DNA of 64,000 bases from assembly GCF_000764305.2 (NCBI RefSeq), contig NW_025931625.1, forward strand, positions 1 to 64,000, in the 5' to 3' direction. The DNA comes from Hyalella azteca (lineage: Eukaryota > Arthropoda > Malacostraca > Amphipoda > Hyalellidae). The translations under genes and the position numbers were made by a program. Under the pieces are notes generated by a model. It saw only the letters and a program-made list of their open reading frames with translations. It was not told the DNA's origin and did not search any database. This document shows, in pieces, positions 7,401 through 51,351 of this stretch (its first letter is position 1; every line of letters starts with the position of its first letter).

Positions 7401-10400
7401 TCACACCTCATTAGCCCTCACCACACTTCACACCTCATTAGCCCTCACCACACTTCACACCTCATTAGCCCTCACCACACTTCACACCTCATTAGCCCTC
7501 ACCACACTTCACACCTCATTAGCCCTCACCACACTTCACACCTCATTAGCCCTCACCACACTTCACACCTCATTAGCCCTCACCACACTTCACACCTCAT
7601 TAGCCCTCACCACACTTCACACCTCATTAGCCCTCACCACACTTCACACCTCATTAGCCCTCACCACACTTCACACCTCATTAGCCCTCACCACACTTCA
7701 CACCTCATTAGCCCTCACCACACTTCACACCTCATTAGCCCTCACCACACTTCACACCTCATTAGCCCTCACCACACTTCACACCTCATTAGCCCTCACC
7801 ACACTTCACACCTCATTAGCCCTCACCACACTTCACACCTCATTAGCCCTCACCACACTTCACACCTCATTAGCCCTCACCACACTTCACACCTCATTAG
7901 CCCTCACCACACTTCACACCTCATTAGCCCTCACCACACTTCACACCTCATTAGCCCTCACCACACTTCACACCTCATTAGCCCTCACCACACTTCACAC
8001 CTCATTAGCCCTCACCACACTTCACACCTCATTAGCCCTCACCACACTTCACACCTCATTAGCCCTCACCACACTTCACACCTCATTAGCCCTCACCACA
8101 CTTCACACCTCATTAGCCCTCACCACACTTCACACCTCATTAGCCCTCACCACACTTCACACCTCATTAGCCCTCACCACACTTCACACCTCATTAGCCC
8201 TCACCACACTTCACACCTCATTAGCCCTCACCACACTTCACACCTCATTAGCCCTCACCACACTTCACACCTCATTAGCCCTCACCACACTTCACACCTC
8301 ATTAGCCCTCACCACACTTCACACCTCATTAGCCCTCACCACACTTCACACCTCATTAGCCCTCACCACACTTCACACCTCATTAGCCCTCACCACACTT
8401 CACACCTCATTAGCCCNAACATTGTGTCGTGTTACGCCTTAACATCGTGTCGTGTCACACCTTAACATCGTGTCGTGTTACGCCTTAACATCGTGTCGTG
8501 TTACGCCTTATCATCGTGTCGTGTTACGCCTTATCATATTGTCGTGTCACACCTTAACATCGTGTCGTGTTACGCCTTAACATCATGTCGTGTCACACCT
8601 TAACATCGTGTCGTGTTGCAGAGCACGGCCGAGGCGCCCGAGCTACGGCTGTGCGTGCAGGGCGCGGCCATCACGCATGCCGCGGACTACACGAAACGCC
8701 GCCACGTTCTACGAATCACGACGCCTGCCGGCACGCAGCTCCTGCTGCAGGCGGAGTCTGCCGTCTGCATGACCACCTGGCTGGGGCACCTGCAGCGCGG
8801 CGCTCTGCAGGTAGTGGCAACCGCAGGAGGTGACAGTTACAGGTGAAGTTAGTCGCTACGGGCGGTGACAGCTGCAGGTTCTTGCAAGCACTGCAATTAG
8901 GAGCAGGTGCTGCAAGTATAGGTATTAGCCAACTGTGTGGGGATCCACGTGAATGGGGCTCGGGATTGGAGGTAGAGGCGGGATGCCAGCCTGCTGTGAA
9001 GTAGCAGGCCGGTTATCGGACCAAATTGTGGCAGAGGGCCAATGCTGCAATCATGGAGTGACTGATGCTTTCGAAAGTTTTGAGAAGTACTTGAAGGAAG
9101 TACTGTATTGCTCGTGGTCCCAAGAACTTCCAAATGAGGAACTGATCCCGATGTAGGGACTTCGTTTACGAAATTATGACCAGTTTTCCTTTTTAACAGG
9201 GAAGAAAGTTCCCAGATCATGGGGGTAATATGGTTTCTTGATAGGATCGTCCGCCTGAGGCGAGGGGCGGAGGTATGTGCATAGAGGATAGTCGGGGTTA
9301 ACTGTTCGCAGAGATTGCTGTCAAGTTTCCGTTGTGTAGTCAAATGTTTCCGTGTTAAGAAGGGGGATAAGTTCTTTTTTGCATATAGCCAGGTGGAACC
9401 ACCCGTTTTCCCTCATGTGGGCCTGTATTAGTGTTAAGACTTTTAGATTTATAATTGGGAGTTATGCGGTTGTCACAGTTCATATTACCTCGCTGTGCGA
9501 CGAGTCTCTGGTTGCTGGATTAAATGGAGAGAGAAAATTCTTTTCGGGAACTATCAGGAATTTGGTTTTTAGTTGCCACGGAAAATACTATAAGGTTATT
9601 AAATATGATGGACCCAATTTAATAAATTCGTACATATTCAAGTATAAATTCTAAATAAATAATTTATGCTCCAAGGGAAAGAGAAAGATTTAAAGTTTTT
9701 TACATGTTTATAAATGTTCAATATGTCCCCCATCTGCTTATGATGTCCGAAACTTTTTGTATCAACTTCCTAAGCGTTGGGTAGGACGCATAGGAAATCA
9801 TAGGAAATGAAGATTTGGCTCTACACTTGTGACCACCGAGATCACCTGATCTCACCCCATGTAACTATTTCTTATGGGGTTACGTCAAGGAAGCTGTTTA
9901 CGTCTCGCCTTTACCAGCAACTCTGTTTACGTCTCGCCTCTACCAGCAACTCTGTTTACGTCCCGCCTCTACCAGCAACTCTGTTTACGTCCCACCTCTA
10001 CCAGCAACTCTGGTGGATCTGAAGAACCGTATCACTGCTACGGTGCACTCTGTAACAAGATATGCTTTCTTGTGTGTGGGACGAGTTTGGCTGCCGTTTA
10101 GATGTTTATTGTGCAGTACAAGTGGGATATATTGAACATTTATAAATATGTTAGAAAAACTCTGAATCTTCCTCCTTTCATTGGTGAATAAATATTTTAT
10201 TTTGAATTTATAGGTACTTGATCATTCATTTTAAAATAGCCCTGTATATATCCATCTTGGCATTACCTAGCATCTTCACGAAATAGAGGTCGGAGCAGCC
10301 TCAAATGCGGATTACCCAGCAGTTATCTCAGCCAGTTAGCTTTGCGAAAATTTACGTGGGAACGGAAGGATCGAGAGATTGAGATGTGTCTGATGATGGA

Positions 10401-13400
10401 AGTCAGATAAGGATAGATTGATTATCAAGTTTGAGGAAGATGATGAGTTAGAGGTTGGATGAGGAAGCGGGACCGTGGGTTGGGCATTCTTTCTTCAGTA
10501 TACCCGAAGAAAGAATCGTCAACGACAACCCTTGTGAGGTAGCTGGGGGTAGAGGTTGGTCATATTGAAGAAGAGCAGTTGGGCCAGGTTCTTTGCTGTT
10601 GTCGTTGTTGTTGTGGTCGTTGCTCTAGTTGTTGTTGTCGTTATGGTCGTTGCTCTAGTTGTTGTTGTCTTTATGGTCGTTTCTGTTGTTGCTGTTGTGA
10701 TCGTTGCTGTTTGCGTTGTAATGGATTTATATATCGTTCTTACGGTGGTTGTTTTGGTGGTTGCTGTTGTATCTGAAGATGTTGTTATTGTTGCTGCTGT
10801 CATTGTTGATGTTGTTGTCATTGATGAGTTTGCTGTTACTGTTGCTGTTTTTATTATTATTTGCTATTTGCGTACATCATTGTTGATAACTTCGTCTTTG
10901 CCGTTGTCGTTGTTGTTGTCTTTGCGTTGGTTTTTGTCATTGCCAATATTATCGTTGTTGTTTCCGTTTTTTCCTTATTTTTGTTGCTGCTGTTGCTGTC
11001 GTCCTTACCATAACCATTTCTGTTGTTGTTGCTGCTGTTGTCCTAACCATTGTTGTTGCCGTTGTTTTTGACGTTTTGCTCATTTTAAAATGAAAATAAT
11101 GGCAACTAATATCACTTTATCGTCAGGATGACGATGCGTTGTTCCCCTCTGGAGACCCGGAGACCCCCACTGGGGCTGAAGCCCCCTGGTCCCCCGACCC
11201 CCCAACTCTCGGTGGGAAGCACACTAGGAAGCCCGCTTCCCTCAGGGCCCACTCCCCCACTCCGCCCCCATCCTTCAATAGACGCAGCGCCCCAGCAGCC
11301 ACACCCACCACTCCCTCCGGTGAGTGTTGCAGGAGAGGTGGTGTTGCAGGAGTGTGAGTGTTGCAGAGGTAGTGGTTTTGCAGAGGTGGTGTTGCAGCGT
11401 TGGTGGTGTTGCAGGAGTGGTGGTGTTGCAGAGGTGGTGTTGCAGGAGTGGTGGTGTTGCAGGAGTGGTGGTGTTGCAGGAGTGGTGGTGTTGCAGGAGT
11501 GGCAGTGTTGCAGGCTTGGTGGTGTTGCAGGAGTGGCAGTGTTGCAAGAGTGGCAGTGTTGCAGGAGTGGCAGTGTTGCAAGAGTGGCAGTGTTGCAAGA
11601 GTGGCAGTGTTGCAAGAGTGGCAGTGTTGCAAGAGTGGCAGTGTTGTAACTCATGTCTCCTCCCCAGATCCCTCCTCGGGAAGGACATGGAAAGGGCTGC
11701 TCGGTAAGCGCCTGAAGAGAAACCAGGGGCCTGGGGCCACCACCTACCCTCCCGGGGCCTCCTTTGGAGTCCCTATTCCCCTCTGCCCCATGGTGAGGTC
11801 CCCAACAATAGCGCGCAGTGTAAGTCCTCATTGTAGCTTACAGTAAAGCCTACAATATGGACTCGTTTTTTAATTCTAAACAAAGTTAGTTTCATATTTT
11901 TACATATTCATATTACAACATGTACACTGAGCAGGCTCACGGGCCACGTACGGCACTCGTGCCATAAATTGACTACCACTTTTACTTAGTTAGTCCCGAA
12001 ATGTATCCCGTAATGTAACGTACAGAGTAGACTACAAAGTAACCCAGAGTGTAACCTACATTGTATATTATAGGTAGCACAGAGTGTAGCCTACACTGTA
12101 GCCCGGAGTGTAGCCTACACTGTCGCCCGGAGTGTAGCGTACACTGTTGCCCGCGGTTATTCCTACAGCGTAGCTAGCACAGAGTGTAGCCTACAGTGTA
12201 GCCCGGAAGGTAACATACAGTCTAACCCAGAGTGTAGCCTACAGTGTAGTCCGTATTGCAGAGCGAGCAACATGACGGCGCTGTACCGCTGGTGGTCGCA
12301 GCGTGCGTCGAGGTGGTGCAACTCAAGGGGTTGCGGTGCCAGGGGTTGTACAGGATTCCTGGTAACAAGGCTGCTGTAACCCACCTCACCGAGGCCTTAA
12401 ACCGCAACCCTACCCAAATCGACCTCACCGACCCAAGGTGCTTAGACTACCTGCTTTTCAGGTGGGGTCTGTCTTACCCTACAGGGGCGACCCACTGCCT
12501 CCTGAGTCCTGCCACTGACTGCGTTGTCGGCTTCAAAGAGTGTGTGCGTGTGCCATTGTTTGTATTGTGTGTGTGTGCCTTCGTTTGTATTGTGTGTGTT
12601 TTTTATGTACCTACTGCACTCTTAAATCGTGGGTGTAGGCACTGTAGTGGCCTCCTCTCTGGTGCCATTATTTCTTTCTTCTCTTTGTCTCTTCACGTCT
12701 CAAAGCTCAACAGCTCCAGTCCAAATCCACTCCTGTTCTCGGTGTGTGCCCTTCAAGTTTCCAGGATAGGCTACTTCATACTCTATACTAGGTTAAAACC
12801 CTACACCCAGTTACGAAGATATGCAGGTCGGCCGTCCATCAATCCATTGACTAAGTCGGCTGAGTGGTCGCCTTGACAAATTCATGTTTGACACCATCCT
12901 CCACCTCAACTGCATCTATGTGCTTTCTAGTGCAGTGAAGCTTATCACTAAAACGTCGTGGCTTTTCATTTTTGTTAGGACGCCGAGCTAACAGTCTCTT
13001 CCATGACCTCCCATGATTTCGCGGTCGAGAACGAAGACCACTTCTCCTTCTCCCATCACGACGAGGCCACTGACACCAAATATGCCAGACCTCTGCATAT
13101 TCTGGAGGCTATAATCGGATCTAATTTTTTCAAAGGAAGACTTCACAGCCCCCAAGAGAACTTGTTGACTTTACGAGAGTGCCAAGCGTTCTCTCTTGAT
13201 TTTCCGCCACACTGAGGTCGCGTGGAGCAGTGACAGGGTTCTGGCTACTTCATCTTTTCCAATTGCTTCTGGAGAAGCTCTGCTCGTCCACTCGCACCAC
13301 TCAGCTGCTGTCGGCCACGACAGTTACTTGCATTCATCGTGTTTACTTGAAGATGGCTCCGAATCCCGCCTGCTGCAACGGTCCTCTCCAGTGCGCCCAA

Positions 13401-16400: not shown

Positions 16401-19400
16401 CGGAAGGTCTGCAGCGCGTGTCGGATCTGTGTCTGCCCTCTAGAAGACTACTGTGTTCGTCATCAACAGCGGACCTCGTTGACTCTCTACACGTCTATCT
16501 ACCGTCGGTGACACAGCGTTCCCGGTCGTCGGCTGTCGGCTTCCGTCTGTCGGCTTCCATAACTTTGGCTTCTTCGTTGCAGGTGTTTCGTCAACGCCTA
16601 AAGACTGAACTATTTCGTAGAGCTTATGAATCTGGTGTTTAGTCATTTTCATCCGTTCTCATCCTTTCTCGTGCCGTGAAACTAAGGCAATATTTTCTTG
16701 AGCACTATTCTGCGTAAGTAATAGCAGCGTAATAATATAACGATCGTCGTAATCATTTAATGATCCCTGCAGGCGGGCTGGTTCTTCAGTGATGCTGAAG
16801 AGGACCAAGTCCCACCAACCCCCGTCACAGGTGCTCCTCTTGGTGACTACGAGCCCCAGCCTCCCCAAGTGCAGGCTTTGCTCGACAACGCTGCTAAACT
16901 TTCGGGTGAGTTACTTTGCTCCTTCCTCCAACCCACATCCTGTCTCGTCTCCACAGCCTCCATCGTTCCCACAGCTTCTCCTGTTCCTCAACCATAATTT
17001 TTCCAACCCATTACCAGCTCCCCTCCCCTCTTCACAGTCTCCCGCACTTCTCGCAACCTCCCCTCTTCCCACCATCGCATCTTTGCTTCCCACCAGTTCT
17101 TTGTTCAACGCAGCTTTCCTTCACTGCTCACTTTCCTTTTTGTAGCTTCACCTAAACTTTTCCTTTCTACAACCCCATCAGCGTCCATTTCCTTGCTCCT
17201 GCTTCTCATTACGTTTTCCTTGCTTCTCAAAACTTCCATTCGCTTCTCAAATTTCCGCTTGCTTCTCTAAACCTCCTCTTGCTTCTCAAAACTTCCGCTT
17301 GCTTTTCATTGCCGCCTTTTGCTCCTCACGGCCCCCCTTGCTTCTCAAAACAGCTTTTGCTTTCACAACCTCCCTTTGTCTATCGTAACCGATTTTTTTT
17401 TTTTGCTTCCCACAATTGCTCCGCGTTCTATAGTCCCTACAAAAGCTTCAGCCCGCTTCCCACAATATCCTGTCGCCTAAAAAGCCTTCATGGTGATTCT
17501 GCCACTCCCCCCCCCCTCCATGCTAACCATAGCCTCCCAAGCTGCGCGCAACCACTTTCTCACTTTTCTACTTCCTCCTCTTGCTACCCGCTATGTCACG
17601 TTGCCCTCTTGCTACTCACCACGTCAGTCCAGGTTTGCCATTTTAACTTAACTGCGATCATGATTTATATTTCCTATAATTTACACCGAACGGTTTCAGC
17701 AGGTCTGGGCAAGTCGGAGAGCAAGAAGGTGCTCGTGTCATCAATAATTTCGGCGGCTAGCAGAAAAGTTCATAAGTCTCGCAATCGTCGCAGGAGCGAG
17801 GAAATCCTTGGGGAGTGGGGAAGCAGGGACCTGGAGCGGTCACGTGACGGGGGCGAGGTCCCCCAATACTCTTCTGTAGAAAACAACCCCAGAATATCCA
17901 GTGGGTCTGCCAATGATTCGGAGACCCATGCGGCTTCTGAAGTATCCCATGATAATGATGAAAGAAACGTTCCTCTTAACAACTCTTTAATTAACCACTC
18001 TGATACGTCCAGTATTGCTGAAGTGTCTAGACAGGATACAGATAACACTTTAAGACTCTCGGCAATGTCTCCGTCCGAACGTTCGTCATGTTCGGACGTC
18101 ACCATGAACTCTGACGTCGCCACACACGTCGGTGACTCCTCTATCTCCTCTGACGTCTACAGACGGCACGACGGGCGGTTATCAGTAGACGTGGCCAGAG
18201 AATCCATCTACGACGTTGCACGGACGAGTTTACCGTCAAGTCTGAACCATGATAGCTACAGAGACGCAACTCTTCGGCCCACCGGCGCCACGCCGTCATA
18301 CCGCGACCACAGCCGCACCAAGCAGCGCATCAAGCGCTTCGTCGACGAAACGAAAGCCAACCTCGACCGGCAGATCCCAGTAGTGCTCCACTCCTCCTCG
18401 GGACCTCTCTCCTCGTCAGGACTCCTTTCCTCTAGTGGGCCTTTCTCCTCTGCAGAGCCTCGTACCTCCGAAGGGTCCCTTTCCTCCCAAGGTATCCTTA
18501 ACATTGCAGGACCCCTCTCTTCTCGTCCTCTATCCTCCGGAGGGCCGCTACCTCCTCCCAGAAGACGGACTAGCGTCCGGCTAGACTTTGACAAACAATC
18601 CATCGATGCCGCCTGGTTGAAGGCAAAAAAGGATTTAGAAGAAGTGGATCCTTTAGATCTCATAGCCGATAATCCATCAGGTGAGCATCTATAATCGATA
18701 ATTGATCAATAATTTTGTAACTTCAGTATTTTTTCCGATAATGCAATCACACAATATTGTAATAAAAATTTAAAGTTACCTTCATTTTAGTTCTTTTCCA
18801 GAAATATATGATAAATTAACAAACAATAACCCTACTGTGCAGAGGTGCTTCAGTTGTTCGGGCACTCCGAGACCAGAAGCAACGAAGCCCTCAGTTTACC
18901 CTCACCCTGTGTGACGTCCGGCGATGCTGCGGACGAAGATGACGAAGTCTCCCTGACTAGCTTGCCCTTTGCTTGCGCCCCTTCTGCCCTCACTAACGTT
19001 TTACCCTCTCAGGTAAATGGGCAATGGGAACAAAATACTAACGAGGGAATCTACAGGAACACTCTAACGGCGAAAGCTTTACTTCGGCAGGGATACAATG
19101 GTAGCATTACTGGTCCTATTTCTTTCCTATCTCGTTCCATACGGGGCTCTCACTCAAATCTCCTTAATGTTTCTCTGTCGCCGTATACAACAGGTTCTCA
19201 GTCTGCCTCTGTCTCCTCTGTCTCAAGTACCGGGCCAATACCTGCTTGTCATAAATCACAAGTTGCATGCGTTTCTTCTCATTCTAAGTCTGTGACACCC
19301 AAGGTAGCAAATGTTATCGAAACACTTTTGTGTCCAGCGCTTGCAGTTGGTCACCCCTCTACTCGTACGTTCTATTCAACCCCTACTCCTCATACCCCAT

Positions 19401-22400
19401 TGTTCACGCCTTCCTTGGGCACAAATTCTTCAATAAATGTCAATATTTCACTGAACTGCATTGGTGACATAACCACTAATTCTTCCCCAAACGCAGATTT
19501 TTCCAATACCTCCTCCTATTTATCTTCAACCACTAATTCTTTACGAACCACAAATGTTATTTTAAGTACCAATTCCTCTAAAACAAATTATACTAATCCA
19601 ACTACCAATTCTTTTTCAACCACAATTCTTCCCCTAACCACCAATTCTCCTCTAACCACTGAAGCCTCCAGCTCGGCGGTAAGCCGTCCTCCTTGCACTA
19701 CTTACCCAATAACTTATCTTCCACGGCGCCATTCACTCGTCTCTTCCTGCTCGCTTCTTCCTCATTCCAATGTCCTTGTGAGACGGCATTCTGATCCTGG
19801 TGCTCAAAAAACGCGTGCCTTCAAATATCGCCAATTTTTCCATACACATTCATCTTGTAGAATGTCAACAACTGAGATACCTTTCACTGAACCGTTCCAC
19901 GCTCAACCTATCAATGGTGTTGCTGGCACTGCTAACTTTTACTCAACATTAAGCAGCGGAAGCATGCGACAAGGTTCTACTTTGTACAGTTGCTTGCCTC
20001 TTGACCCCGCTGTTGGAATGTCGACTAGAACGCTTAAGCTCGAGGACTGCACTGAACAGACTGATAGATCAGTCGGCGAGCACTGTACTAAATGGACTGA
20101 TGGGCCAGTCAGCAAGCACTGCACTGAACGGACTAGTGCATCAGTCGGCGAGCACTGCACTAAACAGACTGATGGACCAGTCAGCCAAGACTACACCGAA
20201 CGGACTGATGAATCAGTCGATTACTTCACTGAACGTACTGATGGACAAGTCAGCCAAGACTACACCGAACGGACTGATGAANGAACGGACTGATGGATCA
20301 GTCAGCGAGGACTGTACTAAAGGGACTGATGGATCAGTCAGCAAGGACTGCACTGAACGGACTGATGGATCAGTCAGCGAGCACTGTATTGAACGGACTG
20401 ATGGACCAGTCAGCCAAGACTACACCGAACTGACTGATGAATCAGTCGATTACTTCACTGAAGGTACTGATGGATCAGTCAGCGAGCACTGTACTGAACG
20501 GACTGATGAACCAGTCAGCCAAGACTACACCGAACTGACTGATGAATCAGTCAGAGATGGTTTAGACTCGGTATCGCGTGAATCTCCGAATCGCGGTTTG
20601 CCCATGCTTCAGAACTATGATAAAATCTCGTCAGCTTTGTCACTGACGTGTAAAGAATCATCAACTGCAACATCTGCAATGTCACAGTCTGAAGCCCCGC
20701 CAACTGCAACATCTGCAATGTCACAGTCTCAAGCTCTGCCGACGGCAATGTCCGTAATGTCACAGTCTGACGCACCCCCATTTGAAACATCACAGCCTTC
20801 TGTTATCTCATTCGAAATCCCAATATCTGCAGTGCCTCTAGCAGGAGCACCACCATTTGCTGCGTCGCCTTACGCGCCCTCTTCAGGCAGCCTTCGTGCA
20901 TCATCCGTTTGGGCAACGCGACCCACAGTTCCGAGGGCGCTACCCTGGCACTCCGTTGTGGCCAGCCTCTTGCCAGCTCAACTCTGCGTGTCTGATGCCG
21001 CTCTCTACGACGAACTGAAGAAGCCTGGCGTTTCCGACGCGTTCATATTTGATAAGATTAAAAAAAACTATAATTCCGACTCTTGTTTAGCAGCTACTCT
21101 CAAGACCCCGTATATTTCTGACCCTTCCTTGCATCGTGAGCTCTCAAAGCCTCGCATTCGTGACAGCTCTTCCCTTTCTTCCTCTGTCAAGGAGAAAAAA
21201 TTGTCACCCAACAAACGCTTCACTGAGTTCCTAAACAACTCTCTGTCCAGTGACGCCTGCGCCAACGTCGCCCTGCTCTCTTACAGATCAACTCCCTCCC
21301 TGTCGCCCATCTCAGGTGGCTACCAGCAGGTTCCATCGCCCCAGACTGCCAGCAGATTACCTCGTGAATTCTCTAACACCTTCAAAAGTATCACCAATTC
21401 ATCCACAAGGATCCCTATTTCGTCCAAGAGTATGCCCAGTTCACCCAACAGGATTCCCAGCTCGCCAAGAAGCATCTTGATCTCTCCCAAAAGTGTCCCT
21501 AGATCATCCAATAGTCCCTCCACTTCGTCAGAAAGCATAAAGACACAAGCTCCCTCAAGTGCACCCGAAGATCTTGTAGAGTCATGCGGACTCACGGTCG
21601 TCAGCCCCTGTGACAAGCTCGCCCTTCTTCCTGTTCCGACTTCTCCACCCTTGGGGAGACGTCCTTCGCTTGAGGGGTTGGGCACCGATTCCCCTTGCGT
21701 CCTCGCGCATCCCCTCGCTGATGCGTGCTCTTCTGATTTGCACTTCACAGCTTCTTCACACGTTCACACACCCTGCACTTCACTACTTCACTTTTCGAGC
21801 TGCGACTTTCCTTCTCAGCCTGACCTCGCGAGGGCTCTAGGGCGCGAGTGTCATTTGGTGAGTGGTTGAAGGGGAGTGTTATTTGGTGAGTGGTTGAAGG
21901 GGAGTGTTATTTGATGAGTGGTTGAAGGGGAATATCGTGTTGAGTGGTTAAGGGCTAGCGTCGTTTGGACGCGAGGGGTTGCAGGAGAGTGTTACGTGGT
22001 GAGTGGTTGAGGAGGGAGTGTCGTGTGGTGAGTGGTCGAAGTGTTGTGGTTTGAGTTGCTCGCCGTTCTGTGTTACTTGCAGCACTAGGTTTCTCTTGCA
22101 GCAACAGTGTTGCAGTATTACTGTCTTGAAGAAACGAGGTGTTCAAGCTAGGCTGTCCTACATTAACGCAGGTTTACACTTACAGTAGTGGAGGTTCTGC
22201 AGAACTTAGTTGTAGTAGTGGTATTTTACTATGGGTTTGTAGTATTGGTGTAGCAGTAACCCACTAACGTCAGCTCGCGTGTGCAGGAGGGCGGCAGGAG
22301 TCAGGTGACGTCTGCAGATGACGGCTCACGGCAGCTCGCCGACGACGGTAAGTTTCTACCACATTTCATTCACTTCCAACCTATTCGTAACTTCTGCAAG

Positions 22401-29899: not shown

Positions 29900-30153
29900 C
29901 ATGGTTGAACTAGTATAAGGTTGACCCATTAGAAGCCCATTTTTGAGGATGTAGTTCGTTGTTCGTCTATGACGTCACTGATCTCAGTGACGTCACGGGC
30001 ATTAACCAATCACCGAAATGCGCTCAAACCAGTCAACCAATCCGTCATGGGAATGACGGGTTTGTTTACGTTTCTCGATCTACGTGACGTAACAAGAAAG
30101 CTGAACTGAAAGACGGAAATCTTTGTGGGTCAACCTTATATAGTTCAACCATT
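29900..30153 (+). mobile_element. hAT-like MITE, copy 2
   Basis: 254 bp with termini CATGGTTGAAC and GTTCAACCATT and a perfect 8-bp duplication ATGGACCT (29892-29899, 30154-30161). It has two TGACGTCA sites in its centre. Confidence 0.9.
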
Positions 30154-30194
30154 ATGGACCTGACCGTGCACATAGATTGCTTTACTAAGATACG

Positions 30195-30862: not shown

Positions 30863-31075
30863 TTATGCGGCATCGTCGGGAAGTTCGAGGAGCTCCCTCA
30901 TCTGGGTGAGGGAGGCCTCGAGAGCGTCTCTGAAGGTGCTGGAGTGTGTCTCGGGGGAGGAGTTGAGGGCTGACACGCCGAAGACGATGGAGGCGCTGCG
31001 TGGGTTGTAGCAGCAGCCGTAGCCATCAGGCACCAGCGGCCCGTAGCACATGAAGGCCTCGCAACGAGCAGGGAC
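30863..31075 (-). CDS. CRAT: CRAT last exon with stop
   Basis: Reads VPARCEAFMCYGPLVPDGYG, CCYNPRSASIVFGVSALNSS and MRELLELPDDAA followed by TAA. This matches the C-terminal block of CRAT (MFFGPVVPDGYGVCYNP). Acceptor TTTACAG. A minus-strand AATAAA lies about 180 bases downstream. Confidence 0.95.
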   Translation of the reverse strand, partial: VPARCEAFMCYGPLVPDGYGCCYNPRSASIVFGVSALNSSPETHSSTFRDALEASLTQMRELLELPDDAA

Positions 31076-34000
31076 CTGTAAAGATGCATGTGATGGTAAA
31101 GCAAACCCCAAATTATTTCGCATAAGAACTAATGCCATTTACCTTATGCTTTATTCAATTTATTGTCCATGATTTTGGCCTAATTACAAGCGGCTCTCGC
31201 GTAGAAAGAAATCTACTTTCGAAGTCGCGGAACGGTTGCTAATAATGCTGCATAGAAGGTGACATTTAAAATCAAAATAAAATTTATTACTACAGAAGTT
31301 TCATTCAAAGTATCTACATTTTTATTAATTACCAGCAGCACATGATCTTCTCCGCTCAAAGGAGTATAGTCACTAAGATCAATGGAGGCATTCTTTATCA
31401 TAATTTGATTGTTCTAATTGAATTAGATTTTATTCACTTCTTTTGGACATCATTAGGCAATTTTTGAGGTTACCTACAACTGCTTCAGTCGAGCAGTTTC
31501 ACTAAACTTCATAGGAACATTGCTAGGCTCTAATGGTAGGGTACGCACCTGGCTGGTGGAGAGGCACGCACCTGGCTGGTGGAGAGGCACTCACCTGGCT
31601 GGTGGAGAGGCGCATGTGTGCAGATCGCGCATAAGCCACGTCCATGAAGATGGCCGGCACGTCCATGCCGAGCTCGATGGCCGCAAGCTTCAGCCCCAGC
31701 AGGTGGCGGTCCACCCCCTCCCCTTTAACGGCCTGCAACAAGACGGCCATTCAACACTCAATAACTTTACTTTTAATTCAGTTCTACATTACTCAGGTAC
31801 AGTTAATTCAGTTCTAGCTAATTCAGTTACAGTTAATTGCTCATAATTGTTTGGTCAATTCAATGCAAAAATGCTACTATTGCACTCTCGGTCTAGTCCT
31901 AATGTTTACTGGAAGGAAATATTCACACATAAATATATCTTTTACCGGTACTAAAATTAGTTTTCAGCATCGGTTAACTTATCACCGGTTCATATCTTAG
32001 GGTACGTACACAGTGAAAGCAGGTTTGCCCGCGCGGGCAACCTGCTCCAACCTGCCACAAGAATGAACATAAGATAATAATGTAAGTGTTCACAGTGAAA
32101 ACCTGTACGAATAGGCTTCTGCCGACAACCTGCTTATACCTATTTACCGGAATGTACTGCACATTCTTATCTGCTCAACCTGCTTGGCATATGGTCATTT
32201 TTGAATTAGTTGTACTTTTAAACCCTCCATTTTCTTTGTTTGCACTCAATTGGAGGGATTTTTGAGAGGTAATAACACATGATGAGCATCGGCAGTGATC
32301 AATTAATCACGGAGGTGTATGCTCGAACAACCATTTGGGACAAATGGAGTAAAGAGCACTCTAACCGAATTGTAGTTGAGAAATTTGAGCCGACATTGCC
32401 AAGAAGATGAACTGTGAAGGTAAGGGAACATTGGTTTAATCTTACTTTAACTGCATATCAAAAAAAGACCTGGTTTCTTCCTCTTGCGAATGGTTTCTTC
32501 CTCTCTAATGACAAAGGCCTGGTTTCTTCCAGCTGGTTTCCTGCTTCCTCTGTGAAAACCCTCTCGCATTTGTTTCAGGCGCCAGCCTCAGCAGGTAACC
32601 AGCACGCTGGCAACCTGCTTTCACTGTGTACGTACCCTTACACTCTATCACCACTGCCGACAACCTGCTTATACCTATTTACCGGAATGTACTGCACATT
32701 CTCATCTGCTCAACCTGCTTGGCATATGGTCATTTTTTAATTAGTTGTGCCTTTAAACCCTCCATTTTCTTTGTTTGCACCCAATTGGAGGGATTTTTGA
32801 GAGGTAATAACACATGATGAGCATCGGCAGTGATCAATTAATCACAGAGGTGTATGCTCGAACACTTATTTGGGACAAATGGAGTAAAGAGCAATCTAAC
32901 CGAATTGTAGTTGAGAAACTTTGGGCTGACATTGCCAAGATGATGAACTGTGAAGGTAAGGGAACATTGGTTTAATTTTACTTTAACTGCATATCAAAAA
33001 AAGACCTGGTTTCTTCGTCTTGCGAATGGTTTCTTCCTCTATTATGAAAAAGGCCTGGTTTCTTCCAGCTGGTTTCCTGCTTCCTCTGTGAACACCCTCT
33101 CGCATTTGTTTCAGGCGCCAGCCTCAGCAGGTAACCAGCACGCTGGCAACCTGCTTTCACTGTGTACGTACCCTTACACTCTATCACCTGCCTGCCCTAC
33201 ACTCCCCAGCACCTGCCTGCCCCACACTCCCCAGCACCTGCCTGCCCTACACTCCCCAGCACCTGCTTGGCGTAAGCGTTATGGGCAGCGACGGCCTGCA
33301 GCAGGAGGCGCCGCTGGTGGCGAGGGGCGGCGGAGGCATCCAGAGCCGCGGCGCAGAAGGCGGCGCTCTCCTCAGAGCAGCTCCTGATGGTCTCCGTGCG
33401 ACCCCCGGCGAACATCCGCGTAGACGCGGACTCGTAGTGGGCGGCGGGCTCCCCGTGAACTCTGGGGGAGGAGGCGGAGGATTAGTGAACGGCGGGCTTC
33501 CCACTCCCCTTGGAAGTGAGGTGGAGGCTTATGAAGCCGTTGGGACTTACCTGTAGTGGGACTTACCTACTTACCTTCATACAAGTCTGTATGCAGCTGT
33601 TGAGATTTACCTGTAGAAGGCCAGCTGGATGGCCATCTGTATGAAGCTGTCGGGACTCACCTGTAGAAGGCCAGCTGGATGGCCATTTGTGTGAAGCTGT
33701 CGGGACTCACCTGTAGAAGGCCAGCTGGATGGCCATCTGTATGAAGCTGTCGGGACTCACCTGTAGAAGGCCAGCTGGATGGCCATCTGTATGAAGCTTT
33801 CGGGACTCACCTGTAGAAGGCCAGCTGGAAGGCCATCTGTATGGGACTCGCCTGTAGAAGGCCAGCTGGATGGCCATCTGTATGAAGCTGTCGGGACTCA
33901 CGCCCTTCGCCTTCATGAAGGTTTTGCCGTACTTGTCGTACACGAAGCACGTCATCTCAAGGTCCTCCACCAAACTGTTAGGAACCATACAAAATAAATA

Positions 34001-37000
34001 ATTTATGCATCAAGTCATTACCAGACAAAGAATAGCGTCAAATAAAAGTCACATCAAACAACGCCACAAGTTCACTCCATAATCACGCTACAATAAAGCA
34101 GGCAACCGATCACAAGATTGAATTCATATTAATGTAAGGACACACGAATATAGTGGAAATACATACCGAGTTCTGGTAGTATTTAGATAATAAATTATGA
34201 ACTTGTTTTATTTATACATAAATAACACATAATAATGTTAGTAAGTACATAATGATCCATCTGTCGACAATGACCCACCCGTCAACAGTATCCCGCCTGT
34301 CAACACAAACCCACCTGTCAACACTAACCCATCTGTCAACAGTATCCCACCTGTCAACACTAACCCACCTGTCAACAGTAACCCACCTGTCAACAGTAAC
34401 CCACCTGTCAACAGTATCCCGCCTGTCAACAGCAACCCGCCTGTCAACAGTAACCCACCTGTCAACAGTAACCCACCTGTCAACAGTATCCCGCCTGGCA
34501 ACAGTAACTCACCTATCAAGCACGGTACCCGCTTGGTGAATTTGTGCCTCGAGATCAGACGGGACGGTGAACTGCAGGCGACGAGGCCGGGACGTCTCCA
34601 CGGCCAACAGGGACTTGCTGGCGCGCCCACTGGCCCTGTCCAGACGACGAGACAGGGATCAGACAGGCGAGACAGTGTGAGATTTCATCGCTTGCCCTGT
34701 CTAGATAGTGTTGAGACAGTCGTGACAGTGAGAGTTGGGCGCAGTACTTGTTGAACACTGTCCAGACAGTCGTGAAGGTGATGGTCGACACTTGCACTGT
34801 CTAGGCCCCGATGCGACAGTAGTGACATGCTATGAGTGCATCAAGACTAAGCATCAAGTCTTCATCCCTAAGTCAGCAGCGATGCAAGAAGGAGAACTGT
34901 AAACGCTGGATTATGCATGACTTCGAACTCCACATCCCAATCATCTCTAACTGAACCTAAAAAAATTGCCTGCTCTGTCGAGGACTTGTATAGAATGTCA
35001 CAACTGGCTGGAAATTTTCATGTGATCATGATTAGTTGCGCCATACCTGGTTTATGTGTGTTCATGCTGGCTCGCACGCTCCACGGAGAAGAGAGACTCC
35101 ACATGCCATATGGCCCAAACGCCACACATCACCTACACGCCACATAGAAACTTACGCCACACGGCTCATCCAGCACCACACGCCACACATGCACCACACA
35201 CCACTCATGACCCACACGCCACACATGCCCTACACGTTACACGACACACATGCACCACACGCCACACATGATCCGCACGTTACACGCTACACATTACCCA
35301 CACGCCACACAAGACCCACATGTAGTCGACGATGTGGTCCATGAGGTTGGCGATGGGAGGGCCCTCGGCGGGGGAATGTTCGTACGTGAGCCCCACGCGC
35401 CCGCTGGCCCCCACCACGAACTGTAGGCGGCGACACAGAAGTCAAGGCACCAGAAGCTCAAATTGAAAAGGCAAAAATATGAGTAGGAAAAATGATGGAC
35501 CATTAACTGCAACTGGAGTGAAGAACGAAATACTCTTATTAAAAACTTCCACTTGACATGAGAATCTGAGGAGAAGTGGCACGGAGCGACTTGAGGACAT
35601 AAGGCAGACTGGCAGTAATGATGGTGACAGTAAAGAGGAAGTAGTTGCAGTTGCAATGTAGGAGCTACAGTAAAAAGGCAGTAGTATCAGTGGCTGTGGT
35701 GGCAGTGAGAGTAAACTGGCAGTAAAATCGCTCGCCTGCTTAATATAACTGAACCTATAATATATAGGTTCAGTTATATTAAGTTATATATTATTATATA
35801 AAATATAATAATATAACTGAACCTATAAATAACTATATTGAATAATGAGTCTCTTCCCTAGAGTAATTTGACTGAACCATCTGTTGCTGGGGAACATCAC
35901 TGCTCACCTGGATGGTCTTATCAAACCAACCATCTGTTGCTAGAGACAACATCACTGCTCACCTGGATGGTCTTATCGAACCATCTGTTGCTACGGACAA
36001 CATCACTGCTCACCTGGATGGTCTTATCGAACCATCTGTTGCTAGGGACAACATCACTGCTCACCTGGATGGTCTTATCGAACCATCTGTTGGTAGGGAC
36101 AACATCACTGCTCACCTGGATGGTCTTATCGAACCATCTGTTGGTAGGGACAACATCACTGCTCACCTGGATGGTCTTATCGAACCATCTGTTGGTAGGG
36201 ACAACATCACTGCTCACCTGGATGGTCTTATCGAACCATCTGTTGCCAGAGTTGCCAGAGGTGCCGCCGCCATGCAGACACTGCAGCGCGGCGTCTGTCA
36301 TGGCGTTGCCAGTTGACGGCTGCACGACGGCGTCAAGGCAGACCAAGAACAGCGAGCGCTGCACCTCCCGCAGGCTGGCCGCGTTCTCAGCACTCGCTGC
36401 AATTTCAGGTCATTACAATCGTATAATATCATCATAATATAATAACTTTATAATGTAATCCAGGTCATTAAAATAATATATTCTCATAATATAATAACTT
36501 TATGATGCAATAATAATTTTATTAATCCTAAGGAACCCCATCATAGACCAGCATGTATAGGCAAGGCTTTAACTATACGCAGCGTTTTTTACACGAGGCC
36601 ATATTGATAAGCATTGTATTTAGGCAAGGACTTATGAACCAGCATCAGAAAGGTATGAACTCTGTGATACACTTGAGAACGACAATGCTGTACAACCAGG
36701 CGCACACCGTGGATTCAAGTTGCTATCTCTTCTCAATCTCATAGACACAACAACCACATTTCTGTCACTGCAGTGCTTCAAGGAATCAAGGGGGTTTTTA
36801 GGTAGCCATTACTTTCCACTTGCTTTCCATGAGTTCCCGCCCACCCCATAAATAAGTCCAGGTCGGCAGCTGAGGGTTTTAGATAGGCTGTCTACACATT
36901 CCTTAATGCCTAGCCTTTGAAAATACGCACTGTAATAATAAATACAACTACTTTCGCGCTGTTCTACGGAAATTTCACTGCTAATATGAGATATTTTGGT

Positions 37001-40000
37001 TTACCTACCACATGGAGTCTGATTCAGTAATGTGCGACATACCAACTAATGTAGACTAAATATTAACGCATGTCTCAAACACGGCGTACAATTCGCACGC
37101 TTCACGAGCATCGGAGTACAAAAATTTTTATTTCTTGCAGGGAAATTTTTCAAGCAGAAGGTCTTACCTTTGAGCAGCGCTTTGTAGGCCTGGCCCCACA
37201 CGTTCCTGTTCTGCGTGGTGAGAAGCCCCAGGGGCACCGCGGGGCGCGTCGATCGTTCGAGGATACTTTGTAGCTGCGCCTGCAGCTGAGACACGTTCAG
37301 GAGCTGGTTGTTCTTGCCGTGCACGTCGAGTCTGAAAAACTGTACAATGTTTACCGTGAGACAGAACTGTAAAATGTCCAGTCTGAAGAACTGTACAATG
37401 TCCAGTCTGAAGAACTGTACAATGTTCACCGTGAGACAGAACTGTACAATGTCCAGTCTGAAGAACTGTACAATGTCCACCGTGAGAGAGAACTGTAAAA
37501 TGTCCAGTCTGAAGAACTGTACAATGTTCACCGTGAGACAGAACTGTACAATGTTCACCGTGAGACAGAACTGTACAATGTCCAGTCTGAAGAACTGAAC
37601 AATGTTCACCGTGAGAACAAACGTGAGACCAAAGCTTCGAAACTGCACTGGAAAGACAAGCTAAAAAGCACGCTCAGTTTTGTTGTAAAATAATTAAAAC
37701 TTTGATACAGACCTCTAGTTTTGTACACGTGCAAGACGAGAACTATGCAACACACATGTCAGGAGTACATAGCATGTTGTAACTATGCAACACACATAAC
37801 TGTGTGTACATAGTATGTTGTGTTGCTGCACGAGTATAGTGCGAGTATAGAAGCGGGAACTATAATACTTAGTCCTTGTAGTCAAGTTCACTGAGAGGGA
37901 CAGAATGATTTCCATGTCTTCAGAATAAAACTTGAACACATTGAAATATCAAAGACAAACAAACGTTTATCTTTCTCTAGCGCAACTTTATCACCAGGCG
38001 TCCGAACTTTAATTAGTTTACACTTTACAGTTTAATAAAATAACAATTTCTATTTATTTGGCCATAAAATTAGCAGCATAATTAAATCATCTGGTGAATA
38101 ATAAACGTTTACTGCTCGAGGACCATGAATATAGAAAGGCAATTGCGTTACTTAGTTCAGAAGTGACGTAATGTCAGACGCTTGCCAGTCCCAGTACAGT
38201 CCACCTGCACTGTGGGAGGCCTCCGCGCTGATAAGTTAAACATTAGGAAAACGTACAATGTTTTACGTATTAGTCATTTCATTTATTTGCCCTGCCTTCC
38301 CTCATATTTAATGGACATTTACCTCATATTTTGCGTGAAGACACATCGTGGCAGTTTCAGGAGTAACAAGGTTAAGGTTGAATGTAAAATATTTGCCTGT
38401 ATTAAATAGAAGAAGTCTTGGCAACATTAATAGTCTGACTGACAATTAATACTAAAGAATGTGAGTGGTTCTGGTGCATCACCACAATGTGGCGAGCAAC
38501 TCACGTGGTTCTGGTGCATCACCACAATGTGGCGAGCAACTCATGTGGTTCTGGTGCATCACCACAATGTGGCGGGCAACACTCACGTGGTTCTGGTGCA
38601 TCACCACAATGTGGCGAGCAACACTCACGTGGTTCTGGTGCATCACCACAATGTGGCGAGCAACACTCACGTGGTTCTGGAGCATCACCACAATGTGGCG
38701 AGCAACACTCACGTGGTTCTGGTGCATCACCACAATGTGGCGGGGAGGGTCGGGATCCTGGCCGTGGAAGCACAAGGAGTCCTTGGTGAGGCCGGGTATC
38801 CTGCAGGTGCCGAAGATCTTGTGGTACTGTGACATGTCCATCTCAGTGCCTCCGCTGCGGTCCACGGGCACCTGGTTGCTGCACAGCACGTATTCAGTGA
38901 GCATGACATGTTTGGTGAAAGTTAACTTGGGATTACATTTTTAGCAGGCATCATTTGTATAATGTTTATTTTGCAAATGGGCTTTCGGTTAAATATTCCG
39001 AATATTGCGAACGGGCTTCCATTTCAAAACAATGACTGCAGTTATCTACTGAATTTCCAACACATTAATCTAATGGATAATGCAATAAGAGGACAGTAAA
39101 AGATACCTAGTGTAGNACTCCATTTAAATATTTTTTTTATCAGTGTATGAAGGCAGGAAAATGGTACCTACTTTGCTTAGTACAAAATTTTGAACTTCAA
39201 AACTGGCAAAAAGTCTATGGTTCTGACCAAGGACTACTACACACATTGTAATACTATTGTATGAAACAATTATGGGCATATCATTTGTTGATGCCACTAA
39301 AACACCAGCATTTTCATAGTGTAGGCGATCGCCTCTGCTAGCAGAGGCTGGACATAGGCTATGCATGTCCTGTGTGTAGTAGTCCTTGCCTGAAACATAA
39401 GTGAGCCTATAAGTATAAGCAGCCTATAAGTGAGCACAATTAGTGTAACTCTTCCAGTCCTTGAAATTTAAATTTTGATCAATGCTTCATGGATTGTTGT
39501 CACAAGTGCATCACATTCATTTCAGAAACATGCAATGTGCTAGGAATTCCAGTTTGTTGTTCAATGTCTCTTTTTTTCTTTGGCTCTGACAAAGATTTAC
39601 TAAAGAGCTGCATATATGTAGTACGATTTATAATTTTCATTCACTATACTCCATAATACATGTTGCTTTCACTACACTGATCCTACAGTCCAGAATCCTT
39701 CATTGCCACCTCTTTCCTTTCATTGCCCCAGGTTTACTTGTTTCAAGACTTAACAGTTAATTGGGTGAAAAATTTGACCCCACCCCAAACATCCCATTTA
39801 TAGTTATGTGCACCACAGAAAACTCTGCACTACTCAGATTCAAGCATAAATTCTAAAATTAAGAGATTATAATTTTTTAATGTCATTCCAAATCAAAATT
39901 GATGAACTCGGGAGCCTAAAACATCTGCGTGTTCTCAATGCCATGTCAGACCTCAAAATGTCTCAAGGTCTCATGGTCATACAAATCAAGCCAAATTTGA

Positions 40001-48744: not shown

Positions 48745-51351
48745 GTGAGTCAGGCCATGTAAATGTATTCCCTCACATTGTCCTCACATTGTCCTCATAT
48801 TCCCTCACATTGTCCTCATATTCTCTCACATTGTCCTCATTTTCCCTCACATTATCCTCATATTCCCTCACATTGTTTTCGTATTCCCTCACAATGTACT
48901 CATATTCCCTCACATTGTCCTCTTATTCTCACATTGTCCTCATATTCTCTTACGTTGTTCTCATATTATCTCACATTGTCCTCATATTCCCTCACATTGT
49001 CCTCATATTCCCTCACATTGTCCTCATATTCCTTCACATTGTCCTCATATTCCCTCACATTGTCCTCATATTCCCTCAATGAAGAAATAGGCCCATGGCC
49101 TGTTGCCGATTCTTGAATTTTCGTGACTTGATTCACAAGGGATCCGGCCTTTGGAACCCGACCTTTCCATAACTGACGATTGATTGAGATGACAGTTCCT
49201 TTGGAGGAAAGGCAGACTTAGATCAGATTTATTCATATTATTATTCTTATTTAATGAAATATTTATTTTTAAATTCTATTCAAATTCAGTATTTTCAAGG
49301 ATGATGGATAATAATAGATGGATAATAAACAACTTATTTAATAATTAACTCTGTCATGTGCATTGTCGTATTTCAAAACTCAATTTGAGTAACTCCATAA
49401 TAATAAAACGTTACATGCTGATGAGTGACTATAGTGGCAGTGCCTGAATGTCGAATATAAGCGTTTTGGTATGCATTGAAATTTCCACATGACTCTCAAG
49501 GTATTGATCAAAAGAAATTAGAGTGTGCATTTTTTCCTAAAACTTGTGATAATTTAGCATTGAAGTCCTTGAGTTGGAATAATACCATGCGTGGCAACGA
49601 CAACATGAGCCAAGTTTAAAGCAATACGTTTGTTGCATCAGCAAAAAATGTCAACTCCCGAAAAATCATAGTTTTTTTAATTCAATCCAATCTAAATACA
49701 AAATAATGGCCAACGACGGTTACAACATTCATACAATCCGCTATGACAACACCAGTAATCTTCAGCTTCTTTGAATACCAATGATCAAAAAAATGAAATT
49801 TTTTAAATTAACGCCAATTAATTTTTTCACACGGAAGAAAAATTATCTTGAGTTTTTAACACATTCTTCGAAAAATTCCGAAAGCTTGAGAATAATAAAC
49901 CGAAATTTGAGACCAGCAGTAAAACATCTGATGGTCACTCACTATCTTTGCTACTGTCACTTGCAGATACGAAAAATGGGGAGCGGAGAGTTCGGTGCGG
50001 GGGATCGCTGGTCAGTGGACGCTATGTACTGACTGCTGCGCAGTGCGTCGCGCCAAGCTACATAAGAGGGAGGAAACTGTGAGCATGCGGTAGGCTGGTA
50101 CTGCACGACGCTAGCTCACATGTATATTGTGCAGTAACTGCAACAGTAAACACGAAGTTATTTAACGCATTTTCCCACAAAGCTTGAACGCAATATGCGT
50201 GCTCTGCGCCATAACAAGCGCAGTTCACAGGATTATAGCTGGAAAAACAATGTCATATAATTTTTTGAAACGCTTATCCGTTTGATTCGCCCACGCAGGA
50301 CGCATGTGACTCTCGGGGACTGGAGGCTGAGCACAGACCCCGACTGCTCGGACAACGTCTGTGCTCCTGAGCGCCTTTCCGTCTTAGTTGAAGAAGTGGT
50401 CGTGCATCCGGGGTTTAACACACCCTCGAGGCTGAACAACGATATCGCTCTAATAAGACTGCAGAGCGAGGTCAATTTTAATCGTGAGTGTCCGTAATTC
50501 TTTATACGGTATAAAATAGATAATTGGAACTTGGGAAGCCTGTCGATAGATCGACGGAATTTTCAACTCTGAAGGCAGAAAAAGGCTTTCCATACCTACC
50601 GATAATTAAATGCATTAATAGGCTAGCGGATTAAGCATATTTACTTTCAATGAGACGAATTAAATGAGAAACTATCAGACAAACAAAGCCTATTTTCTAT
50701 TGGGGAATCATGAAATATTTCTCATAGGTTTTATTCAACCAATCTGCCTGCCGCCAACGAACTTTGGGAGCTCTGAAGTCTCGGTGAACCAAACCGTGGT
50801 TGCGGTTGGCTGGGGCGACACCGTAACTGGTGACGCTAGCGACGTGCTGAAAGAGGTTCGCCTCAACATCGCAGAACCGTCCGTCTGCAAACGAGTTTAT
50901 TCTTCGAATTTTCAACTTAACGGAGCGCACGTGAGTGTAATGACGCTGAGATAACAATATTATTCCATCACATGTGCATCGACATGCCATCTTAATCACA
51001 AGCAAAAACCTGTTTGATATGACTTCGGTGAAGCGCTAAAACTAACTATAGAAGTTGTTCGATTCCTCAAATTGACATTAGAGGATGTAAAACATCTTAT
51101 CTTGCTACAGAAGACATAAAGATACATTAACAAGTTTAAATGCCATTCAGATGTGCATCGGTGGAGGGCTAGAAGACACGTGCTTTGGTGACTCTGGAGG
51201 CCCAGTGATGAAGCTGAACAAAGACCAGCGTTCCTATGTGCTGGCCATCACGTCGTTCGGAGCGCCAAACTGTGGTACTCCTGGACAACCTTCCGTGTAC
51301 ACCTCAGTAGCTCACTTCAATGACTGGATCCGCCAGTCAATGAAGTCATAA
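48678..51351 (+). CDS. Secreted S1A serine protease homologue with His-to-Gln active site; gene span
   Basis: Exons 48678-48744, 49967-50078, 50299-50483, 50728-50930 and 51151-51351, all joining in phase with GT-AG borders. A signal-peptide-like start (AAMVTLLLLTA) is followed by a trypsin fold: CGGSLVSGRYVLTAAQCV, NNDIALIRL, QPICLP, VAVGWGD, CFGDSGGPVM and PSVYTSVAHFNDWI. Asp102 and Ser195 are present, and Asp189 (in EDTCFGDSGG) suggests trypsin-like specificity. His57 is Gln (codon 50041-50043), so ordinary proteolysis is unlikely. The CSDNVC pair and VEEVVVHPGF resemble the catalytic domain of clip-domain proteases. No clip domain is visible, and the stretch normally linking IVGG to CGGSL is too short, so an exon may be missing. 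It could be a non-catalytic homologue or a decaying copy. Confidence 0.85.
48765..49080. repeat. 21-bp array in the first protease intron
   Basis: Unit CCTCATATTCCCTCACATTG plus T, about 14 copies, starting some 20 bp after the donor. The unit resembles the exon end TCACGCATTGTC, though less closely than in CRAT. Confidence 0.92.
49078..49125. repeat. Dispersed ~60-bp repeat, one of three copies
   Basis: GAAGAAATAGGCCCATGGCC and TGTTGCCGATTCTTGAA recur at about 44895-44955 (plus) and 56550-56595 (inverted). The class is unknown. Confidence 0.7.
49967..50078 (+). CDS. Serine protease homologue exon 2: CGGSL and mutated His57 motif
   Basis: Reads TKNGERRVRCGGSLVSGRYV, then LTAAQCVAPSYIRGRKL. 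Cys42 and Cys58 are kept; position 57 is Gln (CAG at 50041). Acceptor CTTGCAG, donor GTGAGC. Confidence 0.88.
50299..50483 (+). CDS. Serine protease homologue exon 3: catalytic Asp
   Basis: Reads THVTLGDWRLSTDPDCSDNV, CAPERLSVLVEEVVVHPGF and NNDIALIRL. The Asp of DIALIRL is Asp102. The extra Cys pair is typical of arthropod clip-protease catalytic domains. Acceptor CACGCAG, donor GTGAGT. Confidence 0.9.
50728..50930 (+). CDS. Serine protease homologue exon 4
   Basis: Reads FIQPICLPPTNFGSSEVSVN and VVAVGWGDTVTGDASDVLKE, then EVRLNIAEPSVCKRVY. These match the PICLP and VAGWG strands of S1A proteases. Acceptor CTCATAG, donor GTGAGT after GGAGCGCAC. Confidence 0.9.
51151..51351 (+). CDS. Serine protease homologue exon 5: GDSGG and C-terminus
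   Basis: Reads MCIGGGLEDTCFGDSGGPVM, SFGAPNCGTPGQPSVYTSV and ends DWIRQSMKS with TAA. Ser195 and Asp189 are present. An AATAAA at 51807 could end the transcript. Confidence 0.93.
   Translation: MCIGGGLEDTCFGDSGGPVMKLNKDQRSYVLAITSFGAPNCGTPGQPSVYTSVAHFNDWIRQSMKS

What the first reader, a model, noticed from the sequence alone, without database searches (positions are those of the whole stretch)
31546..38712. Minisatellites built from splice junctions at most CRAT exon borders
Seven CRAT borders (donors at 31594, 33262, 33851, 34512, 36217, 38712 and the acceptor at 37340) are followed or preceded by tandem arrays whose unit contains the exon's own terminal bases plus its splice site. An eighth (35319) is similar but degenerate. 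Periods differ (23, 25, 50, 18, 51, 42, 24/27 bp), so the arrays arose independently and share only their anchoring. I know of no described genome-wide process that amplifies splice junctions like this. Repeated slippage seeded by GTGAGT/CAGGTG motifs, or repair at transcription-linked structures, are inferences.
Basis: partly seen in the sequence, partly recalled or inferred. Interest (0 to 1): 0.9.

Follow-up and report, generated by a model that had tools for sequence, protein, structure and literature searches.

The report
Repeated splice junctions beside crustacean exons
In a small freshwater crustacean, many exon ends of some genes have been copied over and over together with their splice signal, so that the start of the intron is a run of near-identical false exon ends, which probably survive because splicing cuts them out.

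Summary
The gene is Hyalella azteca CRAT: the joined exons equal an annotated protein over all 468 residues. TRF arrays overlap the exon edge at 7 of 8 CRAT donors and 1 of 9 acceptors; random placement gives at most 2.0 donors on average and reached 7 in none of 4000 runs. It is not private to CRAT. In other genes of the assembly (acyltransferase paralogues, myosins) 17 of 102 predicted donors lie inside an array, and only 2 have one starting 1-10 bp away. Kinesins gave 1 of 15. Cases concentrate in array-rich loci: 16 of 41 donors against 1 of 61 elsewhere. Four CRAT introns concerned sit at the same place and phase in a paralogue without junction arrays there, so the arrays are later than the introns. 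Best reading: tandem duplications arise widely in GC-richer genes; those across a donor are removed by splicing and can expand. A donor excess remains unexplained: 2.5-fold over GC-matched intron, 2.3- to 4-fold over donor-like motifs that are not known donors. Scattered precedents exist in print, so: new variant of a known kind.

The parts
38713..38871 (-). CRAT exon E1 (donor after 38713; its acceptor at 38871 is my inference, the annotated protein reads on upstream)
   Evidence: translation identical to P0001
38465..38742 (-). donor array of E1, 42 bp x 6.7, 30 exon bases inside; period a multiple of 3
37168..37339 (-). CRAT exon E2 (acceptor before 37339; its donor at 37168 has no array)
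37334..37617 (-). acceptor array of E2, mixed units
36218..36396 (-). CRAT exon E3
35874..36246 (-). donor array of E3, 51 bp x 7.3, 29 exon bases inside; six further copies with the identical junction 16-mer; frame open over most of the array
36398..36511 (-). array starting 2 bp from the E3 acceptor, in the intron (52 bp x 2.1)
35320..35420 (-). CRAT exon E4
35173..35320 (-). degenerate array starting at the E4 donor
   Evidence: no junction copy reaches 11/16
34513..34635 (-). CRAT exon E5
34257..34519 (-). donor array of E5, 18 bp x 14.6, 7 exon bases inside
33852..33974 (-). CRAT exon E6 (exon-adjacent donor is GC: CAG|GCGAGT)
33586..33901 (-). donor array of E6, 50 bp x 6.5, 50 exon bases inside; copies carry GT donors
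33263..33461 (-). CRAT exon E7
33185..33266 (-). array at the E7 donor, 25 bp x 3.3, 4 exon bases inside
31595..31732 (-). CRAT exon E8
31543..31611 (-). donor array of E8, 23 bp x 3.0, 17 exon bases inside
30863..31075 (-). CRAT last coding exon E9
21846..22041 (+). second gene (pac-1, ARHGAP21-like): donor array 28 bp x 6.9 with 12 exon bases at 21857; this exon end is my model, the annotated protein leaves that exon earlier
11319..11646 (+). second gene: array starting at the donor 11319 (17 bp x 19.6), 1 exon base inside

Best explanation
These are minisatellites that grew out of tandem duplications straddling 5' splice sites of old introns. A duplication of about 20-90 bp that covers the exon end, the donor and the first intron bases places every extra copy downstream of the original donor. 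If the exon-adjacent donor is used, all copies are spliced out whatever the unit length, so the event is nearly neutral and the array can grow; copies keep recognisable donors because the unit contains one. The events are frequent only in array-prone, GC-richer genes of this genome. Shown: position, unit content, recurrence in other genes, age order (intron before array, four introns), dependence on locus. Inferred: the duplication step, use of the exon-adjacent donor, neutrality, purging of duplications inside coding exons, and weaker tolerance at acceptors (an upstream acceptor copy would tend to be used first; from general knowledge of splicing).
For: Array starts lie inside the exon end: 17 of 102 donors at distance 0, 2 at 1-10 bp, 2 at 11-30 bp; in the last 30 exon bases 11 starts against 2.7 expected from intron interior, P 1.3e-4. 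Of the 18 donors printed I read 9 with at least 8 exon bases in the unit, 3 ambiguous, 6 short. Stages run from about 2 copies (C2268, C3598) to 68 (C3321). The exon copy is coding sequence identical to the annotated protein, and the residues at the E1, E3, E5, E6 and E8 ends are alike in Hirondellea P0002, so the exon is the source. Introns after E1, E3, E5 and E6 have the same position and phase, read by eye, in paralogue C2747, which has no junction array there. Donor-array periods do not favour multiples of 3 (10, 8 and 9 of 27 in the three classes), as expected if they are spliced out. In CRAT donors exceed acceptors (7 of 8 against 1 of 9, Fisher P 0.003). Array-rich loci hold the cases: donors 16 of 41 against 1 of 61; array fraction follows GC3 (rho 0.69) and background GC (rho 0.59) over 26 loci, some from one contig.
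Against: Neutral tolerance alone predicts no excess over other intron DNA, yet donors show 2.5-fold (16 against 6.3, P 8e-4), and 3.9-fold for arrays of 5 or more copies (9 against 2.3), after GC matching, and more than antisense pseudo-donors (12/102 against 8/275, P 0.0015). Slower decay, because one copy is protected by coding selection, could give part of this, but donor arrays are not cleaner than interior ones (90% against 88% median match, P 0.45). The donor-over-acceptor contrast is not significant in the other genes (17/102 against 10/113, P 0.10). Array coverage just inside the intron at donors is no higher than deeper in the intron (0.19 against 0.16-0.22). Array copies have a donor as strong as (E1, E3) or stronger than (E6: exon-adjacent GC 5.5, copies 12.2) the exon-adjacent one by my scoring, so use of the first donor is not a given. 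The class 'array-rich' includes the donor arrays themselves. The four exon-internal arrays show no frame preference (2, 2 and 0 by period class), so purging inside exons is not shown. No RNA was available. Kinesins gave 1 of 15 donors.
Confidence: 0.6

Rival explanations
1. Donors are mutational hot spots: something tied to a working 5' splice site (transcription, co-transcriptional spliceosome assembly, repair) raises the rate of tandem duplication there.
For: Excess over GC-matched intron and over the same motif where it is not a known donor; donor arrays have more copies than interior arrays (medians 6.7 against 3.2, P 7e-4; without CRAT 7.1 against 3.2, P 0.003).
Against: Interior arrays show no link of copy number with sense-strand G skew (rho 0.04), so no transcription-strand effect was seen; 1 of 61 donors in array-poor loci is touched, so a donor alone is not enough; sense pseudo-donors (14/270) differ from predicted donors only at P 0.04 and may include unknown real ones.
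Confidence: 0.22
2. The arrays are kept by selection because extra donors help splicing or make useful protein variants (periods of 42, 51 and 18 bp in CRAT are multiples of 3).
For: Donor arrays keep a donor motif mainly on the sense strand (mean best score 7.06 against -0.27, 27 arrays; at least 8 in 11 against 1); a human interferon-induced transcript has a minisatellite that supplies several donors (title seen).
Against: The motif is in the unit by birth, so its presence is no proof of selection; periods are not biased to multiples of 3; copies at E8 (GTGCGT) and some at E5 (GC) have weaker donors.
Confidence: 0.1
3. The introns themselves were born by tandem duplication of exon segments (the AGGT or tandem-genomic-duplication model).
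For: Unit content resembles that model; at E6 the coding bases GTGAGTCCC one unit upstream equal the intron start in the copies (by eye).
Against: After E1, E3, E5 and E6 the intron exists at the same place and phase in a paralogue without junction arrays there. Not tested for E4, E7 and E8.
Confidence: 0.03
4. Assembly artefact: the assembly multiplied single-copy junctions.
For: The window has 6 N (665, 6900, 8417, 20282, 24455, 39116), five of them in or at the edge of arrays; one C3321 donor array also holds an N, so copy numbers are unsure; two arrays of one unit lie 8 kb apart (447-664 and 8418-8617).
Against: Copies within donor arrays differ (median 90% match); no N lies in the CRAT arrays; other loci of the same assembly are clean (1 of 61 donors).
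Confidence: 0.05

Closest known systems
Human IFI6 (6-16, G1P3) minisatellite with multiple splice donor sites (Nucleic Acids Res 1995, 23:1854; title seen in the reference list of PMC2572611; content recalled)
   Same: A minisatellite at an exon end whose unit supplies splice donors.
   Different: One gene with a short unit (recalled); here several genes with different units, many of them made from the exon's own end.
Internal tandem repeats at exon-intron boundaries in human segmental duplications (PMC2812944, passages read)
   Same: Minisatellites (on average 30-bp units, 4 times) at exon-intron borders that change splicing; 27 intron modifications after manual inspection.
   Different: There they are reported to form novel introns in recent paralogues; here old introns carry the arrays, at 7 of 8 donors of one gene.
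Human introns from tandem arrays (Zhuo et al. 2007; title seen in the reference list of PMC3488318; content recalled)
   Same: Tandem arrays whose units hold splice signals.
   Different: Concerns intron birth with matching boundaries (recalled); here the array is one-sided and, where tested, later than the intron.
[quoted passage not shown] PMC3443670 and PMC2891723, passages read)
   Same: A tandem duplication across or beside a splice border.
   Different: A single duplication giving a new intron; here no intron gain where tested, and many copies.

Membership tests
Minisatellite | head-to-tail units of 10 to about 100 bp (range as given in PMC3152781), several copies with variants | tested here: met
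   TRF periods 18-51 bp and 2.8 to 14.6 copies at the seven CRAT donors; up to 68 copies in other genes
Minisatellite | copy number varies between individuals | not testable with these tools
   one assembly only
Splice-donor minisatellite (IFI6 type) | units hold a donor in the right strand at an exon end | tested here: met
   met for 6 of 7 CRAT donor arrays and 1 of 2 in pac-1, not for E4 and pac-1 exon B (no junction copy at 11/16)
Splice-donor minisatellite (IFI6 type) | several of the donors are used in RNA | not testable with these tools
   no transcript data
[quoted passage not shown]
   introns after E1, E3, E5, E6 shared in place and phase with paralogue C2747; E4, E7, E8 not tested
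Introner elements | near-identical introns dispersed over many genes | tested here: inconclusive
   the donor-array units listed differ from each other, which speaks against it; no genome-wide search for copies of one unit was made

The most novel reading that the evidence does not exclude
A working 5' splice site attracts tandem duplication in this animal: a process linked to transcription or splicing copies exon-end-plus-donor segments, making introns grow from their 5' ends and giving genes dozens of near-identical donors. The evidence (excess over GC-matched intron and over similar motifs that are not known donors) does not exclude it.
Probability: 0.2. Interest if true: 0.88.

Novelty: new variant of a known kind. 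Interest (0 to 1): 0.62.

Why it matters
It offers a natural series of genes with 2 to 68 near-identical tandem donors, which makes an old question (how the spliceosome picks one among equal 5' splice sites) testable in RNA from one animal. It points to a route by which old introns lengthen from the exon side, and to splicing as the filter that lets exon-derived repeats persist. It also warns that gene models and assemblies of such genomes may be wrong at these places.

Tried and rejected
Motif seeding: interior arrays (105 far, 28 near) have no donor-motif bias between strands, and pseudo-donors lie nearer to background. R-loop or strand effect: no correlation of copy number with sense G skew in 133 interior arrays. 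GC as the whole cause: GC goes with copy number (rho 0.35) but GC matching leaves a 2.5-fold donor excess. Younger age of donor arrays: no difference in match. Contig length as cause: no correlation (rho 0.19, P 0.35). Microhomology at seed ends: considered from the fractional copy numbers, judged uninformative, not computed. No Rfam family in the window at gathering score; one CRAT piece has no plasmid match. Rows dropped before counts: of 119 exon hits 17 gave no donor and 6 no acceptor call; three of the 90 myosin hits were fetched later and tabulated apart (0 of 3 donors inside an array, one with an array 18 bp away); of 141 listed kinesin hits 20 (every third of the first 58) were fetched, of which 15 gave a donor call. 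Donors outside the window were called by my script with recalled splice-site frequencies, so single calls can be off by a unit; one donor array (C3321:33245) was missed by it. In one search I first tested CRAT donors against 8 acceptors; there are 9, corrected.
Full report
What it is. The window is part of the Hyalella azteca assembly (G000, 519 Mb, 4890 contigs; the window is C335:1-64000; the organism from the name of protein P0001). Nine minus-strand exons between 30863 and 38871 join into one open frame with consistent phases, which matches an annotated H. azteca carnitine O-acetyltransferase at 100% over 100% of the query (P0001) and carnitine acetyltransferase chains of the PDB (1nm8, E 1.2e-128). 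On this contig no hit to positions 1-109 of the family was listed, so the first part of the enzyme is missing here.

Observation. TRF finds 48 merged arrays of period 9 or more in the window, 8284 bp. Arrays overlap the exon edge at seven of eight CRAT donors and at one of nine acceptors, and one starts 2 bp from another acceptor. Further junction copies with at least 11 of 16 matching bases number 4, 6, 0, 11, 5, 3 and 2 for E1, E3, E4, E5, E6, E7 and E8. With 11 arrays placed at random in the gene, 7 donors were touched in none of 4000 runs under each of three placement rules.

Second gene in the window. A pac-1 (ARHGAP21-like) gene lies on the plus strand; the annotated protein P0121 agrees with most of my exon borders, but ends exon C at LCPM and leaves exon I at VLPSQ, well before my end. 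Two of its 11 modelled donors are touched (11319, 21857), a third has an array 7 bp away. This is not above chance under the two placement rules that allow overlap with exons (touch P 0.20 and 0.43; within 10 bp P 0.06 and 0.17).

Other genes. Six other contigs with carnitine acyltransferase hits were read (32 exon hits). One, C3321, has 25 arrays over 49% of the stretch: three of its four exon hits end inside an array (20, 20 and 42 bp units), and at the fourth a 29-bp array starts 22 bp past the hit with the junction repeated in register by eye. The other five have 0 to 4 arrays each; two small ones lie near C2747 exons. Of 90 listed myosin-head exon hits, 87 were fetched. Over both families 119 exon hits gave 102 donors: 17 inside an array, 2 at 1-10 bp, 2 at 11-30 bp; and 113 acceptors: 10, 1, 3; the donor-acceptor difference here is not significant (P 0.10). 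The 20 kinesin stretches gave 1 of 15 donors and 0 of 19 acceptors, the one case having about 40 exon bases in a long unit.

Controls. Array coverage just after donors (0.19) is the same as deeper in the intron (0.16-0.22), whereas before acceptors it falls to 0.10: arrays run right up to and over donors but thin out at acceptors. Array starts in the last 30 exon bases are 4.0 times the interior rate per non-array base (11 against 2.7; P 1.3e-4); acceptors 1.8 times (6 against 3.3; P 0.11). GC-matched, the donor excess is 2.5-fold (16 against 6.3) and 3.9-fold for arrays of at least 5 copies (9 against 2.3). Predicted donors carry an array that starts 0-30 bp upstream in 12 of 102 cases, sense pseudo-donors in 14 of 270, antisense pseudo-donors in 8 of 275. 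Unknown exons in the 'interior' would make these contrasts conservative; mis-called donors may work either way.

Nature of the arrays. Donor arrays (27, CRAT and pac-1 included) keep a donor mainly on the sense strand (mean best score 7.06 against -0.27), are GC-rich (0.52 against 0.39 background) and have more copies than interior arrays (medians 6.7 against 3.2). Their match between copies is about the same as in interior arrays. Loci with many arrays have higher GC3 and higher background GC; nine stretches picked without regard to genes have array fractions of 0 to 0.25.

Age order. In the paralogue on C2747 the introns after H|(M)FR, before FVV, and in VD-AG| and YF-AG| sit at the same places and phases as the CRAT introns after E1, E3, E5 and E6, by eye, without junction arrays; a 26-bp two-copy array without exon bases lies in the first of them. 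So these introns are old and the CRAT arrays are later.

How it most likely works. Inferred: a tandem duplication that straddles a donor leaves the coding exon intact and places each extra copy in the intron; if the exon-adjacent donor is used, the change is silent and free to expand. The same duplication across an acceptor would tend to be read from its first AG and be less silent, which fits the weaker signal there. What this does not explain is the remaining donor excess; slower decay of a pair in which one member is protected, and a true mutational preference, are both open.

Comparison. Full-text searches (CC-licensed PMC papers only) found scattered precedents: minisatellites at human exon-intron borders (PMC2812944, passages), a potato duplication across an intron-exon border (PMC4974935, abstract), Drosophila intron positions from tandem duplication (PMC2891723, passages), a C. 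elegans intronic minisatellite near alternative splicing (PMC4039745, passages), and the IFI6 donor minisatellite (title in a reference list). None of the titles and abstract starts listed describes a genome with recurrent donor-anchored arrays; the Daphnia pulex tandem-repeat survey has no occurrence of 'splice' in its main text (PMC3152781). The H. azteca genome paper (recalled to exist) was not read, and most subscription papers are not in the library.

Noticed in passing
447-664, 7322-8416, 8418-8617: Two arrays with the same 23-bp unit lie 8 kb apart, and a 27-bp array of 40.6 copies at 100% match ends at an N (8417); five of six N in the window sit in or at arrays. Probably gap closure inside arrays; copy numbers and perhaps order are unreliable.
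   Followed up: partly
20045-20555: Repeat (36-bp units) inside a long open frame of pac-1 is broken by an N (20282) across which the frame differs; the annotated protein leaves this frame at VLPSQ, about 2.8 kb before its end at 21857.
   Followed up: partly
8418-8617, 12074-12253, 16728-16765: Three arrays of the pac-1 gene end at distance 5, 9 and 8 before acceptors without containing exon bases.
   Followed up: no
32002-33180: By eye, a stretch bounded by inverted GTACGTACACAGTGAAAGCAGG-like ends and present about twice in tandem inside a CRAT intron; looks like a DNA transposon next to the E7 donor array.
   Followed up: no
2510-2770 and 29900-30155: By eye, two copies in opposite orientation of a roughly 260-bp element beginning TGGTTGAACTA..AAGGTTGACCCA; looks like a MITE family.
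   Followed up: no
33843-33859: The exon-adjacent E6 donor is GC (CAG|GCGAGT) while most copies further in are CAG|GTGAGT; a natural test of donor choice.
   Followed up: no
49852-51351: Pieces of a trypsin-like serine protease gene on the plus strand; by eye no TRF array lies at these pieces.
   Followed up: no
38872-64000: The first exons of CRAT (234 residues precede the matching point in Hirondellea P0002) had no family hit on this contig; the annotated start reads into what looks like intron.
   Followed up: no
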